Source: Pseudoselenomonas ruminantium (GTDB lineage: Bacteria; Bacillota; Negativicutes; Selenomonadales; Selenomonadaceae). From it: a DNA stretch of 34,484 bases. The stretch spans positions 1 through 34,484 of the forward strand of contig CADBYQ010000008.1 in NCBI GenBank assembly GCA_902798865.1, read 5' to 3'. Both the position numbers and the translations under genes were made by a program. Under the pieces are notes generated by a model, which searched no databases, was not told where the DNA came from, and saw only the letters and a list, made by a program, of their open reading frames with translations. Every line of letters starts with the position of its first letter. Position 1 is the stretch's first letter. Shown here piece by piece: positions 1,384 through 27,229 of this stretch.

Positions 1384-1425
1384 AATGGTTAGAGAGCTTT
1401 TGGAAGCGAAAGGAAGATGACCATT

Positions 1426-2874
1426 ATGATAGAATACAATCCCCATTCTTTGCGTGCCGAAGAATTTATCAACGATACAGAAATCCGCGAGACGCTGGCC
1501 TATGCGGAAGCCAACAAGGATAATTTTGCCCTGATTGATGAAATATTGGAAAAAGCCCGGCCGGTCAAGATGGGGACGGGCTATACCTGCAAGGGGCTGA
1601 GCCATCGGGAGGCCTCGGTACTGCTGGCCTGTGAAGACCCGGAACGGGTTGCCCGTATGTACACGATTGCCGAGGAAATCAAGCAGGCGTTTTACGGCAA
1701 CCGCATTGTATTGTTTGCGCCGCTGTATTTATCCAATTACTGTGTAAATGGCTGTGTCTACTGTCCTTATCATGGACAGAACAAACACATTCCCCGCAAG
1801 AAACTCACGCAGGAGGAAGTGCGGGCCGAGGTTATGGCGTTGCAGGATATGGGACATAAACGTCTGGCCATTGAAGCCGGCGAAGACCCCTTCAATAATC
1901 CGTTGGAATATATTTTGGAATGTATTCATACGATTTACAGCATTAAGCATAAAAACGGTGCTATCCGTCGCGTGAATGTGAATATCGCGGCTACCACGGT
2001 GGAAAACTACCGCAAGCTCAAAGAGGCAGGCATTGGCACCTATATTCTCTTTCAGGAAACCTACCATAAGGAAAGCTACGAGCGGCTCCATCCCACGGGG
2101 CCGAAGCACGATTATGCTTACCATACCGAAGCCATGGACAGGGCTATGGAAGGCGGCATAGATGACGTGGGCCTGGGCGTGCTCTTTGGTCTGGAAGGCT
2201 ATAAGTATGAGTTTGCCGGTCTGCTCATGCACGCAGAGCATCTTGAGGCTGTGCATGGAGTCGGCCCGCATACCATTTCCGTACCGCGTGTGAAAAAGGC
2301 CGATGATATCGACCCGGAAGCCTTTGACAACTCCATCAGCGATGAAATCTTCACGAAGATTGCGGCCTGCATTCGTTTGGCTGTACCGTATACCGGCATG
2401 ATTATCTCCACCCGCGAATCCGAGCAGGTGCGGGAGCGTATGCTGCAGGTAGGCATCAGTCAGGTCAGCGGTGCTAGCCGTACCAGCGTGGGCGGCTACA
2501 CGGAAAAGGAACGGCCCACGGATACGGAACAGTTCAATGTGTCCGACCAGCGCACTCTTGATGAAGTAATCAAGTGGCTGATGGAAACGGGCCATATTCC
2601 TTCCTTCTGCACGGCCTGCTATCGGGAAGGGCGTACGGGTGACCGCTTTATGAGTTTGTGCAAGAGCGGACAGATTGTCAACTGCTGTCATCCAAATGCC
2701 CTGATGACCTTAACGGAGTACCTGACGGACTATGCCAGCGAGGAAACCAGGGAACTGGGCTATAAACTCGTGGAGGAAGAACTCAAGAAAATCCCCAAGG
2801 AAAAAGTCCGCCAGATTGCCGCCGAGCATATCGAAGCCATCAAACATTCCGACAAGCGGGATTTCCGCTTTTAA
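1426..2874 (+). CDS. hydG: [FeFe]-hydrogenase H-cluster radical SAM maturase HydG
   Basis: HydG is a cytosolic radical SAM enzyme that cleaves tyrosine to supply the CO and CN ligands of the [FeFe]-hydrogenase H-cluster, through an Fe-containing synthon. The radical SAM cluster motif CX3CX2C is present at C106, C110 and C113 (CVNGCVYC). The auxiliary cluster motif CX2CX22C that distinguishes HydG from ThiH is exact at C395, C398 and C421. Length (482 aa) fits the family. Another ATG lies at 1417, but it abuts the AGGAAG ribosome site (1411-1416). The ATG at 1426 sits at normal spacing and is preferred. hydE and hydF are not in the window, so the gene stands apart from the other maturases. The organism very likely makes or consumes H2 with an [FeFe] enzyme. 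Confidence 0.95.
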   Translation: MIEYNPHSLRAEEFINDTEIRETLAYAEANKDNFALIDEILEKARPVKMGTGYTCKGLSHREASVLLACEDPERVARMYTIAEEIKQAFYGNRIVLFAPLYLSNYCVNGCVYCPYHGQNKHIPRKKLTQEEVRAEVMALQDMGHKRLAIEAGEDPFNNPLEYILECIHTIYSIKHKNGAIRRVNVNIAATTVENYRKLKEAGIGTYILFQETYHKESYERLHPTGPKHDYAYHTEAMDRAMEGGIDDVGLGVLFGLEGYKYEFAGLLMHAEHLEAVHGVGPHTISVPRVKKADDIDPEAFDNSISDEIFTKIAACIRLAVPYTGMIISTRESEQVRERMLQVGISQVSGASRTSVGGYTEKERPTDTEQFNVSDQRTLDEVIKWLMETGHIPSFCTACYREGRTGDRFMSLCKSGQIVNCCHPNALMTLTEYLTDYASEETRELGYKLVEEELKKIPKEKVRQIAAEHIEAIKHSDKRDFRF

Positions 2875-2931
2875 GACTTATGTAACTTGCAGTTTGTGAG
2901 TTAGTGCTTGCTGAAATATTTTTGTTACAGC

Positions 2932-3141
2932 TCAGTTTGGGCGGAGGTGGTAATACTTTTCGCCGTTGCACTGAATGACCCACAAGCAAGGGTAGGCGCT
3001 TTTTTAGCTACCTGCGCCGGGCAAGACCGGCGGCGCGTATGTTCATATCAGTGTTTAGTTTATACCGTTTGTGGGCCAGTCCTCACTTCGTTCGGACGGT
3101 CGTTCCACGGCGAAAAGCATCACCACCTCCGCCCTAAGTGA
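2932..3141 (-). repeat. Hairpin-forming repeat element, copy 1
   Basis: This non-coding element is bounded by 28-base inverted arms (2939-2966 and 3107-3134). 26 of 28 positions pair by Watson-Crick, and the two exceptions (2952/3121, 2955/3118) become G-U wobbles only in minus-strand RNA. A short outer helix (2932-2934 with 3139-3141) adds to it. Inside, on the minus strand, GGCCCACAA pairs with TTGTGGGTC, and a GCGCCG...CGGCGC hairpin is present. A diverged copy in opposite orientation follows at 3235-3443. No coding sequence is supported: the reading frames here are short and pass through the arms. It could be a structured RNA or a palindromic miniature mobile element. Confidence 0.7.
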
Positions 3142-3234
3142 TGTCCGTACAAACCGTCATTTTCGCAGTGATAAGCAGCAAGCACATCGATGTTCTTGTG
3201 ACGGGAGCAACGAGTTCGTGGCAACAGACTAATC

Positions 3235-3443
3235 CGTAACTTGGGGCGAACGGGGAGTGCTTTTTCTGTCAGGAGCGACTGCCTGAACGCAGTGAAGGCC
3301 GGCCCCTGTAGGAAACAGCTAAGTAAATACGTTGAAAGCAGCGCCGTTGGCCTGCCCGGCGCGGGCAACTGGACAGCTATTTTTTCCGAGGGGGTCGTTT
3401 AGCGGGAAACAGGAAAAGTACTCCCCGTTCGCCCCTGACTACG
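3235..3443 (+). repeat. Hairpin-forming repeat element, copy 2 (inverted relative to copy 1)
   Basis: The 27-base arms (3243-3269 and 3409-3435) pair over their full length. There are two G-U wobbles (3259/3419, 3265/3413) when read as plus-strand RNA, and an outer CGTA/TACG helix (3235-3238/3440-3443). Aligned with the minus strand of copy 1, it shares the arm core (GCTTTT...AAAAGTA), GAACG-AGTG-AGG, GGCCC, the GCGCCG...CGGCGC hairpin and the AGCTA next to a T/A run. The 91 bases between the copies (3143-3233) and the stretch 3444-3600 hold nothing I recognise. Together with copy 1 this accounts for most of the gap between hydG and the ROK gene. Confidence 0.7.
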
Positions 3444-3633
3444 TATGAACAGGATACCTTTACCATGAACTAAACTCCCCGACAAACTGCAATTTATCTA
3501 TTTCTGTGGCATGGTTTCAAATTGAGTTGGAATTCATGCCCAATTTTGTAACAATGTATCAGAGTTCTGACAATCTACTGCCTGCCTGGACTGGTTTTTG
3601 ATACAATAAGAATCAAGAAGGAGCGTGACGAAA

Positions 3634-4509
3634 TTGAATTATCTGGCTTATGATGTGGGCGGCAGTAGTGTGAAGTATGCTTTGGTCGATGCAAGTGGAA
3701 ATTTGCAGGAAAAGGGAAGCTTTGCAACGCCGGCAACTTTGGAACAGTTCTATCAGGAAGTGGTGCAGGTACGGCAGCAGCTGAGCGAGGGCAGGGAAAT
3801 CTCTGGGGCTGGTTTCAGCATGCCGGGGGCGGTCAATAATCAGACGGGGATTATCGGCGGCAGCAGCGCCTTGGACTACATCCATGAATTCCCCATCCGG
3901 CAGGCGTTGTCGGAGAGGCTGGGCATGATGGTCACGATTGAAAATGATGCCAACTGTGCGGCTTTGGGCGAAGCATGGACTGGCGCTGGTCGTGTGTATC
4001 GGAACCTGGCGTATTTCGTGATTGGTACGGGCGTTGGTGGCGCTTTGGTGCATGATGGGAAAATAATACATGGCCCACATCAGCATGGCGGTGAATTTGG
4101 CTATATGGTCATGAATGATGACTATGATATCCTGAGTGAAGTGGGCTCTACGGGCGGTCTTTGCCGCCAGTTGGCCAAAATCCGTAACGTGCCGGTGGAT
4201 ACATATGATGGCCGCAAGGTTTTTGCGCTCAAAGAGCAGGGTGATGTCGATGCAGCCCGCTTGATTGATCAGATGTATGAATATCTGGCTAGGGCTGCCT
4301 ATATCATCCAGTATACCTTTGATCCCGAAGCCATTCTCTTTGGCGGTGCCATCAGCTCTCGTCCGGACTTCATCCCGACCATAAATGAGCATTTGCAGAA
4401 AATCCTCATGAGCGTAGGCGTGGCTCATGTAAAGCCAAAGTTGCTGCCCTGTCAGCATGGCAATGATGCCAACCTGCTTGGAGCGGTGGCTAATCTGCGT
4501 GCTTTTTAA
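3634..4509 (+). CDS. ROK family sugar kinase
   Basis: Cytosolic ATP-dependent kinase of the ROK (repressor/ORF/kinase) family, likely phosphorylating a hexose, glucoside or N-acetylhexosamine. The N-terminal phosphate loop is DVGGSSVKYALVD. The sugar-binding/catalytic region ENDANCAALGEA, the second phosphate motif VIGTGVGGALVHDG and HGGEFGYM follow in the usual order. There is no helix-turn-helix domain, so it is a kinase rather than a repressor. The usual ROK zinc-binding cysteine motif (CXCGXXGC) is absent, so specificity is uncertain. The longer GTG start at 3625 lies one base from AGGAG (3619-3623). The TTG at 3634, ten bases away and giving MNYLAYDVGG, is preferred. No partner sugar genes are adjacent. 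Confidence 0.85.
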   Translation: MNYLAYDVGGSSVKYALVDASGNLQEKGSFATPATLEQFYQEVVQVRQQLSEGREISGAGFSMPGAVNNQTGIIGGSSALDYIHEFPIRQALSERLGMMVTIENDANCAALGEAWTGAGRVYRNLAYFVIGTGVGGALVHDGKIIHGPHQHGGEFGYMVMNDDYDILSEVGSTGGLCRQLAKIRNVPVDTYDGRKVFALKEQGDVDAARLIDQMYEYLARAAYIIQYTFDPEAILFGGAISSRPDFIPTINEHLQKILMSVGVAHVKPKLLPCQHGNDANLLGAVANLRAF

Positions 4510-25987: not shown

Positions 25988-26007
25988 ATTTATAACGAGC
26001 AAACGCA

Positions 26008-26111
26008 TAACTCCGAGCAAAAATATCTAAGGTTTATGATTATTCGTGGCTATGATATTGCGCCGGGGCTCTGCTGGAAACGGCAGAACCTTCCATGTTG
26101 AAAAGGGGTAT
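26008..26111 (+). promoter_or_regulatory. Moco (molybdenum/tungsten cofactor) riboswitch
   Basis: The leader matches the Moco RNA pattern as I remember it from E. coli moaA. An ACTC-x-x-AGC block (from 26010) is followed by ATCTAAGG and a GAT..TTGCGCCGGGGC stretch. Then comes a hairpin CTCTGC...GCAGA closed by GGGG...ACCTTCC. ATAACTCC at the 5' side pairs with GGGGTAT (26105-26111) as the closing stem. It precedes two MoeA-type genes and an intrinsic terminator, fitting cofactor-responsive attenuation. The call rests on motif memory and context; a covariance search was not run. Confidence 0.75.
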
Positions 26112-26140
26112 CTATTTTGATTGTGGCCGGTCATTAGGTG

Positions 26141-26197: not shown

Positions 26198-27229
26198 ATG
26201 AAGGAAATGCGCACTGAAGATGCAGTGGGGCAGATTCTCTGCCATGATTTGACGCAGATTATAAGGGGCGTGACCAAGGATGCCCGCTTCCGTAAAGGTC
26301 ATGTGATTCAGGCGGAAGATATTCCTGTGCTCTTGTCTATGGGCAAGGACCATATTTATGTCTGGGAAAATGATGAGTCCATGCTCCATGAAAATGAGGC
26401 AGCAGAAATCCTGCGGCAGCTTTGTCAGAATGAATACATGACGGCTTCTGAACCCAAGGAAGGGAAAATTGAACTGACGGCGGCCGTCGACGGTGTTTTT
26501 CAGGTGGATGAGAGCCGTTTTGATGCGGTAACTGAGCTGGATGATGTGACCATTGCCACCCTGCCGCAGAATATGCCGGTCAAGGCTGGTCAGAAGCTGG
26601 CCGGCATGCGGGTTATTCCTTTGGTCATAGCGAAGGAAAAAATGGAGCAGGTGAAGAAAAAAGCAGGAGATAAGCCGCTTTTACGCCTGCGTCCTTATCG
26701 GCAAAATCTCAAGGTCGGTGTGGTGACAACAGGCAATGAGGTGTTTTGGGGGCGTATTGAAGATACCTTTACGCCGGTTATTGAAAGCAAGTTAAACGCC
26801 TTTGGCCTGACCATCAATGAGCACCGCCTGTCCGATGATGCCATAGAGCACACGCAAAAACATATTGAAGAACTGATAGAATTGGGCATGGATATGGTCA
26901 TTTGCACCGGGGGCATGAGCGTTGACCCGGATGATCGGACACCGGCGGCTATTCGGGCAGCGGGGGCGCAGATTGTCACCTATGGAGCGCCGACCCTGCC
27001 CGGGGCAATGTTCCTGCTTGGCTATGTGGCAAAAGGTGATAAGGGAATTCCCGTTATGGGCCTGCCCGGCTGTGTGATGTATGCAGGGCGTACGATATTT
27101 GACCTGATTCTGCCCCGCGTAATTACAGGGGAAAAACTGACGCGCAAGGAAATTCGCCATTTTGGCATTGGCGGGCTTTGCATGAACTGCAAGGTTTGTC
27201 ATTATCCGGCTTGTGGATTCCAGCACTGA
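26198..27229 (+). CDS. MoeA/MogA-like molybdopterin-binding protein with C-terminal cysteine cluster
   Basis: A 343-aa cytosolic protein of the molybdopterin-binding (MoCF) superfamily, involved in molybdenum cofactor handling. The N-terminal part (about 1-165) resembles MoeA domains: VGQILCHDLTQI...KGHVIQAEDIPVLLSMGKDHIYV. The MoCF domain begins at KVGVVTTGNEVFWGRIEDTF and contains CTGGMSVDPDDRTP and LPGAMFLLGY. MGLPGCVMY follows, where MoeA has GNP. The C-terminus carries C328-x2-C331-x2-C334-x4-C339 (LCMNCKVCHYPACGF), a possible metal or Fe-S site found in this subfamily. ATG 26198 is seven bases after AAGGGAGA. It sits under the Moco riboswitch and is followed 13 bases later by moeA. Confidence 0.88.
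   Translation: MKEMRTEDAVGQILCHDLTQIIRGVTKDARFRKGHVIQAEDIPVLLSMGKDHIYVWENDESMLHENEAAEILRQLCQNEYMTASEPKEGKIELTAAVDGVFQVDESRFDAVTELDDVTIATLPQNMPVKAGQKLAGMRVIPLVIAKEKMEQVKKKAGDKPLLRLRPYRQNLKVGVVTTGNEVFWGRIEDTFTPVIESKLNAFGLTINEHRLSDDAIEHTQKHIEELIELGMDMVICTGGMSVDPDDRTPAAIRAAGAQIVTYGAPTLPGAMFLLGYVAKGDKGIPVMGLPGCVMYAGRTIFDLILPRVITGEKLTRKEIRHFGIGGLCMNCKVCHYPACGFQH

What the first reader, a model, noticed from the sequence alone, without database searches (positions are those of the whole stretch)
2932..3443. Two inverted copies of a ~210-bp element with long closing helices and consistent wobble polarity
Each copy has 27-28 bp inverted arms, a conserved internal helix and a GCGCCG/CGGCGC hairpin. The internal helix differs between copies by paired changes (GGCCCAC with GTGGGTC against GGCCCC with GGGGGTC). 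All four arm mismatches become G-U in the same element strand in both copies although the copies are inverted, which fits a functional RNA rather than only a DNA palindrome. It matches no RNA family I know.
Basis: seen in the sequence. Interest (0 to 1): 0.75.

Follow-up and report, generated by a model that had tools for sequence, protein, structure and literature searches.

The report
Invertible paired-palindrome repeat of Selenomonas
The two hairpin copies are the two halves of one roughly 610-bp repeated DNA element, found only in rumen Selenomonas bacteria, that sits in about twenty places in this genome, often beside transcription terminators, faces opposite ways at the same place in related species, and is kept similar within each genome; nothing found here makes it a clear RNA gene.

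Summary
Two inverted, diverged palindromes lie at 2932-3141 (A) and 3232-3446 (B), with paired changes. They are not two separate elements. They are the halves of one 612-bp unit (2884-3495) bounded by inverted ends AAATTGCAGTTTG...CAAACTGCAATTT.

The unit occurs at about 20 places in this genome and in 15 other genomes of the same genus (Selenomonas), but in none of 39 genomes outside it. A second family with unrelated sequence has the same ends and the same two-palindrome plan.

58% of copies lie beside a terminator-like hairpin. Sites are old and shared between species. At 9 of 17 sites matched on both flanks, the element faces opposite ways in different species, with the outermost end bases staying with the flank. 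That points to inversion in place. Copies often resemble others in their own genome more than the copy at the same site elsewhere (concerted evolution).

Covariation is real. The wobble polarity behind the RNA reading rests on three fixed columns; rare variants show none (13 G-U against 15 A-C). No Rfam match or internal promoter was found. The complete element-rich genome lacks Y1, IS110 and IS630-type transposases.

Best reading: a non-autonomous palindromic DNA repeat, inverted in place and homogenised by recombination. The agent is unknown.

The parts
2884..3495 (+). whole repeated element (612 bp): end - palindrome A (+) - spacer - palindrome B (-) - end
   Evidence: alignment of complete copies; flanks unrelated outside these bounds
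2884..2913 (+). left terminal inverted repeat, AACTTGCAGTTTGTGAGTTAGTGCTTGCTG; near-palindromic core AAAYTGCARTTT
   Evidence: the word AAATTGCAGTTTG occurs 16-28 times in each of three F1-bearing genomes tested, the reversed control word 0 times
3466..3495 (-). right terminal inverted repeat
2932..3141 (+). palindrome A; arms about 2932-2966 and 3107-3141
2977..3077 (+). internal helix of A (GACCCAC.. 2977-2986 with ..GTGGGCC 3069-3077)
   Evidence: helix 3; pair AU in 25, GC in 15 of 41 sequences
3014..3036 (+). GCGCCG/CGGCGC apical hairpin of A
   Evidence: helix 5, nearly invariant
3142..3231 (.). conserved spacer between the palindromes, with CAAGCACATCGATGTTCTTG
   Evidence: conserved in all clades
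3232..3446 (-). palindrome B, diverged inverted copy of A; arms 3232-3269 and 3409-3446
1417..2874 (+). flanking gene, hydG ([FeFe] hydrogenase maturase); ends 9 bp before the element
   Evidence: TIGR03955, E 4.8e-278
3625..4509 (+). flanking gene, ROK-family sugar kinase
   Evidence: best model below its cut-off, NF042998 E 4.6e-47

Best explanation
It is one copy of a non-autonomous, interspersed palindromic DNA element of ruminal Selenomonas, comparable to MITE, ERIC or BIME repeats, about 600 bp long. It spread by insertion at A/T-rich sites, preferentially beside intrinsic terminators. Its copies now persist at old positions. Two processes act on them. One is inversion in place by recombination between the two inverted ends. 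The other is homogenisation among copies of one genome, by gene conversion or by replacement of one copy's interior with another's. Shown: repetition, bounds, ends, genus restriction, shared sites, orientation differences, clustering of copies by genome in several lineages, paired changes. Inferred: original transposition, crossover within the ends, that the palindromes act as DNA hairpins or protein sites, and that break repair using another copy as template could explain both flipping and homogenisation. The enzyme is unknown.
For: About 20 places in this genome for each of A and B; 11 contigs hold both in the same arrangement and the other strong hits lie near contig ends. 15 of 21 other genomes of the genus have it, 0 of 39 outside. 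The ends bound an unrelated family F2 with the same plan in three further genomes. Unrelated flanks outside the ends, and two genomes with a near-empty site. Terminator-like hairpins in 47 of 149 flank windows against 16 of 741 windows further out; 43 of 74 copies have one on a side. 9 of 17 two-sided orthologous sites flipped. Non-consensus outer end bases shared at orthologous sites on 7 of 36 informative sides against 0.9% for random pairs, including four flips. At orthologous sites elements are often less alike than their flanks and no closer than to copies elsewhere; the tree groups copies by genome in G005 and G017 and mostly in G003 and G014.
Against: No autonomous partner with these ends was found. 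No clean target-site duplication: TA on both sides in 23 of 69 copies, and the only near-empty sites keep end-like bases. Recurrent insertion into the same preferred base pair could mimic in-place inversion in part. Most genomes are drafts, some from metagenomes, so single orientation calls may be mixed or misassembled. Control windows for terminators are mostly coding, which exaggerates the enrichment.
Confidence: 0.6

Rival explanations
1. A structured non-coding RNA gene (or a pair of divergently transcribed RNAs) carried on a repeat; selection on the RNA keeps the helices.
For: Covariation beyond controls; the outward strand of each palindrome folds better in 64 of 73 copies for both A and B, and in the F2 family with the same geometry; conserved G-U columns.
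Against: Polarity rests on three fixed arm columns and is absent among rare variants; A is reversed in G001/G013 and B in many G014 copies; no promoter above chance; no Rfam family; location beside terminators.
Confidence: 0.15
2. An inverton system: the ends are sites of a dedicated site-specific recombinase, so that the copies act as a set of switches near gene ends.
For: Flips at 9 of 17 sites; near-palindromic 12-bp core at each end; outer half stays with the flank; invertons are defined as regions flanked by 10-40 nt inverted repeats, and Mitsuokella multacida, a relative, had 181 detected invertons, the most of any strain in that study (PMC11892184).
Against: No recombinase linked to the copies; no promoter in the element; sequence homogenisation is not explained by simple inversion; read-level switching could not be tested.
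Confidence: 0.15
3. Recurrent independent insertion of a MITE into the same preferred targets in each lineage, so shared sites and flips are separate insertions.
For: Copies group by genome in several lineages; preference for terminator-adjacent A/T-rich sites.
Against: Shared rare variants in the outer end at orthologous sites, also in flipped pairs; flanks share little beyond T/A; empty sites are rare in joined-flank searches; no resident transposase of three usual kinds in the complete genome G011.
Confidence: 0.1

Closest known systems
ERIC / intergenic repeat units and YPAL of enterobacteria
   Same: intergenic, strongly palindromic, no coding capacity, terminal TA dinucleotides, many copies, no known transposase (PMC2759123)
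   Different: about 600 bp instead of 127-168 bp, two separate inverted palindromes, flips at shared sites, target duplication not established here
REPIN / BIME with RAYT
   Same: two inverted palindromic units moving as one; intragenomic population kept over long times (PMC3116915, PMC8049555)
   Different: units of about 200 bp instead of 20-40 bp; Y1/RAYT transposase absent from element-rich genomes, including the complete G011
MITEs of DNA transposons
   Same: terminal inverted repeats, no gene, dispersed copies
   Different: no autonomous relative with the same ends found; IS630-type transposase absent from all 22 genomes
Invertons
   Same: inverted repeats of about 30 bp flanking an interval found in both orientations (PMC11892184)
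   Different: orientation differences shown only between species, no promoter, no linked invertase

Membership tests
REPIN/BIME | short REP palindromes in inverted pairs | tested here: inconclusive
   inverted pair present, but each unit is about 200 bp
REPIN/BIME | RAYT (Y1) transposase in the genome | tested here: not met
   no Y1 match in G001, G002, G006, G011, G012, G017, which carry the element
MITE | terminal inverted repeats, no coding gene, many dispersed copies | tested here: met
MITE | target-site duplication | tested here: inconclusive
   TA on both sides in 23 of 69 copies; the near-empty site does not settle it
MITE | autonomous element with the same ends | tested here: not met
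   pattern searches found F1 and F2 copies, probable chance matches in genes, and one IS110 inserted inside a copy; not every end word was inspected
ERIC/IRU | sequence homology | not tested
   no direct comparison made; element found only in Selenomonas in named scans
Inverton | both orientations of the interval between inverted repeats | tested here: met
   between species only, 9 of 17 sites
Inverton | switching within a clonal population by an invertase | not testable with these tools
   needs reads
Structured ncRNA | match to an Rfam family | tested here: not met
   only a sub-threshold CRISPR repeat hit, 15.6 bits against 39
Structured ncRNA | covariation of base pairs | tested here: met
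   not specific to RNA
Structured ncRNA | expression | not testable with these tools
   no RNA-seq

The most novel reading that the evidence does not exclude
The common ends are sites of a still unknown recombination system of Selenomonas that both flips and overwrites dozens of cargo units (two unrelated families, F1 and F2, with the same two-palindrome plan) across the genome, possibly with divergent structured RNAs read outward from each unit as its guides or products.
Probability: 0.15. Interest if true: 0.85.

Novelty: new variant of a known kind. Interest (0 to 1): 0.52.

Why it matters
If right, this is a bacterial repeat population in which positions are inherited while contents and orientation are rewritten, without the usual transposases (Y1, IS110, IS630) in the complete genome. 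Two unrelated cargoes sharing ends and architecture suggest that the ends and the paired-palindrome plan, not the sequence, are what is kept. It gives a natural case for asking what inverts and homogenises dispersed palindromes, and it warns that covariation and G-U polarity in repeated palindromes are not enough to call an RNA.

Tried and rejected
Rfam at curated and permissive thresholds: no family. REPIN/RAYT and IS200/IS605: Y1 transposase absent from element-rich genomes. IS630/mariner, suggested by flanking TA: no DDE_3 match in 22 genomes. IS110: found inside one copy (L195) but absent from G011, G004, G014 and others. Autonomous partner: single end words without a partner lay mostly in ordinary genes, probably chance. 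Viral and phage collections: no match. Plasmids: only pSR1, which looks like a chromosomal fragment. Whole-composite RNAalifold: little covariation because the composite alignment was poor, replaced by separate A and B alignments. Literature searches found no description of this repeat; subscription papers are not covered.

Full report
CHECK OF THE OBSERVATION. The window holds two palindromes, A (2932-3141) and B (3232-3446), in inverted orientation. Aligned in the same sense they are about 77% alike. Both fold much better than shuffled sequence on both strands (z -4.9 to -8.8).

WHAT THE UNIT REALLY IS. Searching the window's own genome (a draft of 2.6 Mb in 300 contigs) finds A at about 20 places and B at about 18. 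Eleven contigs hold both in the arrangement A(+)...B(-). The remaining strong hits lie within about 100 bp of contig ends, as expected of a repeat that breaks an assembly. Aligning complete copies shows one unit with sharp bounds, 2884-3495 in the window, and unrelated sequence outside. The ends are inverted repeats: AAATTGCAGTTTG on the left and its complement on the right, with similarity running on for about 30 bp.

DISTRIBUTION. The unit is in 15 of 21 other genomes of the genus at length, plus one marginal hit in G019 that I do not count, and in none of 39 genomes outside it. Identity runs from 94% to about 65%, yet length and order are kept. A named scan for the end sequence returned only Selenomonas: S. 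ruminantium, S. ruminis and Selenomonas sp. AE3005. The viral collection and the phage records gave nothing. The word AAATTGCAGTTTG occurs 16, 25 and 28 times in three element-bearing genomes; the same word read backwards does not occur.

A SECOND FAMILY WITH THE SAME ENDS. Genome G010 has the end word 10 times but no DNA match to our unit. There the ends bound a different family (F2, 569-708 bp) of unrelated sequence but the same plan: end, palindrome, spacer, inverted palindrome, end. F2 also occurs in G018 and G021. The ends and the paired-palindrome layout are therefore the shared property.

WHERE IT SITS. In our window it lies between hydG and a ROK-family kinase gene. Of 74 copies, 43 have a terminator-like hairpin within 75 bp on at least one side. 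Per flank window this is 47 of 149, against 16 of 741 windows 200-875 bp away and 3 of 447 shuffled windows. The distant windows are mostly coding, so the true enrichment is smaller.

SHARED SITES, FLIPS AND HOMOGENISATION. Comparing flanks between genomes gave 17 sites matched on both sides (sites counted from its pair list). At 9 the element faces opposite ways in different species. The window's own copy is one of them: G009 carries it inverted between flanks that are 94% and 99% identical. Its outer end variant AACTTG stays with the left flank in both orientations, and G006 shows the same. Over all orthologous sides with a non-consensus outer half, 7 of 36 are identical, against 0.9% for random pairs; four of the seven are in flipped pairs. 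This fits a crossover inside the ends. Element sequences at orthologous sites (74-96% identical) are usually no closer than those at unrelated sites; the tree groups all sampled copies of G005 and of G017 by genome, and most of those of G003 and G014. In the core clade (G000, G006, G007, G009, G011, G012, G020) copies of different genomes are mixed. G004_L159 and G014_L164 are 99% alike at different sites, which suggests exchange between lineages. Two pairs (L118/L128, L117/L127) look plainly vertical.

INSERTION. A near-empty site exists: G012 carries the element after GCGAAT, whereas G009 and G000 read GCGAATAAATT(G/A)CAAAGTGCG. This could be the target or a scar. TA flanks both ends in 23 of 69 copies. 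No target duplication is established.

RNA OR DNA. On 41 distinct A sequences, 98.4% of cells pair, 9 pairs show changes on both sides, and no shuffle reached the observed score. So the helices are kept. The polarity argument fails, though. On the strand where the window's copies show G-U, the arm excess sits mainly in columns 17-185 and 20-182 of A and 19-179 of B. The A columns are Watson-Crick in the G001 clade. Among arm changes present in at most three copies the count is 13 G-U and 15 A-C (counted from its table). Against this, the outward-pointing strand folds better in 64 of 73 copies of A and of B, and F2 shows the same geometry. These are only two independent families, so this is weak evidence, and I leave the RNA rival open. 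No promoter exceeds the chance number.

WHO MOVES IT. The complete genome G011 has 30 matches and no Y1, IS110 or IS630-type transposase. Y1 is also missing from G001, G002, G006, G012 and G017. In G005 one copy is split by an IS110/IS1111-like gene inserted in the apical hairpin of B. That is an insertion into the repeat, not its source. Other transposase and recombinase families were not tested.

HOW IT PROBABLY WORKS. The simplest account that covers flips, homogenisation and fixed positions is recombination between copies or between the two ends. A break within the palindromes, repaired from another copy through the short ends, could land in either orientation and overwrite the interior. 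This is inference. A dedicated recombinase acting at the near-palindromic ends is the main alternative. A study of gut bacteria reported 181 invertons in Mitsuokella multacida, the most of any strain it examined (PMC11892184); that it belongs to the same family as Selenomonas is from my own knowledge.

CAVEATS. Most genomes are drafts and several come from metagenomes. G011 is a single contig, and flips involving it (G011_L117, L115, L121, L274) are the safest. Site and copy sampling was limited by the caps.

Noticed in passing
window 25999-26124 (+): Molybdenum cofactor riboswitch (RF01055, 57.4 bits), followed by an ORF at 26198 with a molybdenum cofactor synthesis domain.
   Followed up: partly
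L195:1712-3201: IS110/IS1111-like insertion (398-aa gene) with subterminal inverted repeats, inserted in the apical hairpin of palindrome B of one element copy.
   Followed up: partly
many loci (query parts 367-478 and 300-408): A separate, very abundant repeat of about 100 bp that looks like a palindromic terminator (for example AAGCCCGGTG...GACAAGCTTGTCTAAGCAGAGG...CACCGGGC), often adjacent to the element.
   Followed up: no
L399 (NC_002139.1, pSR1): This 4692-bp 'plasmid' record is 100% identical over 954 bp to the chromosomal flank of an element copy in G014 (L167) and ends inside an element; it is probably a chromosomal fragment.
   Followed up: partly
L181 and L187 element copies; centre of F2 in L197-L202: A REP-like piece (CCTCATCCGAGCGCTTCGCGCCCACCTTCCCC...GGGGAAGGC) is embedded in element copies of different families.
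   Followed up: no
G004_L159 and G014_L164: Two copies at non-orthologous sites in different species are 99.2% identical, suggesting recent exchange between lineages.
   Followed up: no
L064 (G000 C156 copy): A copy with a duplicated central segment containing a second CATCGATGTTCTTGTTACG module, 738 bp in all.
   Followed up: no
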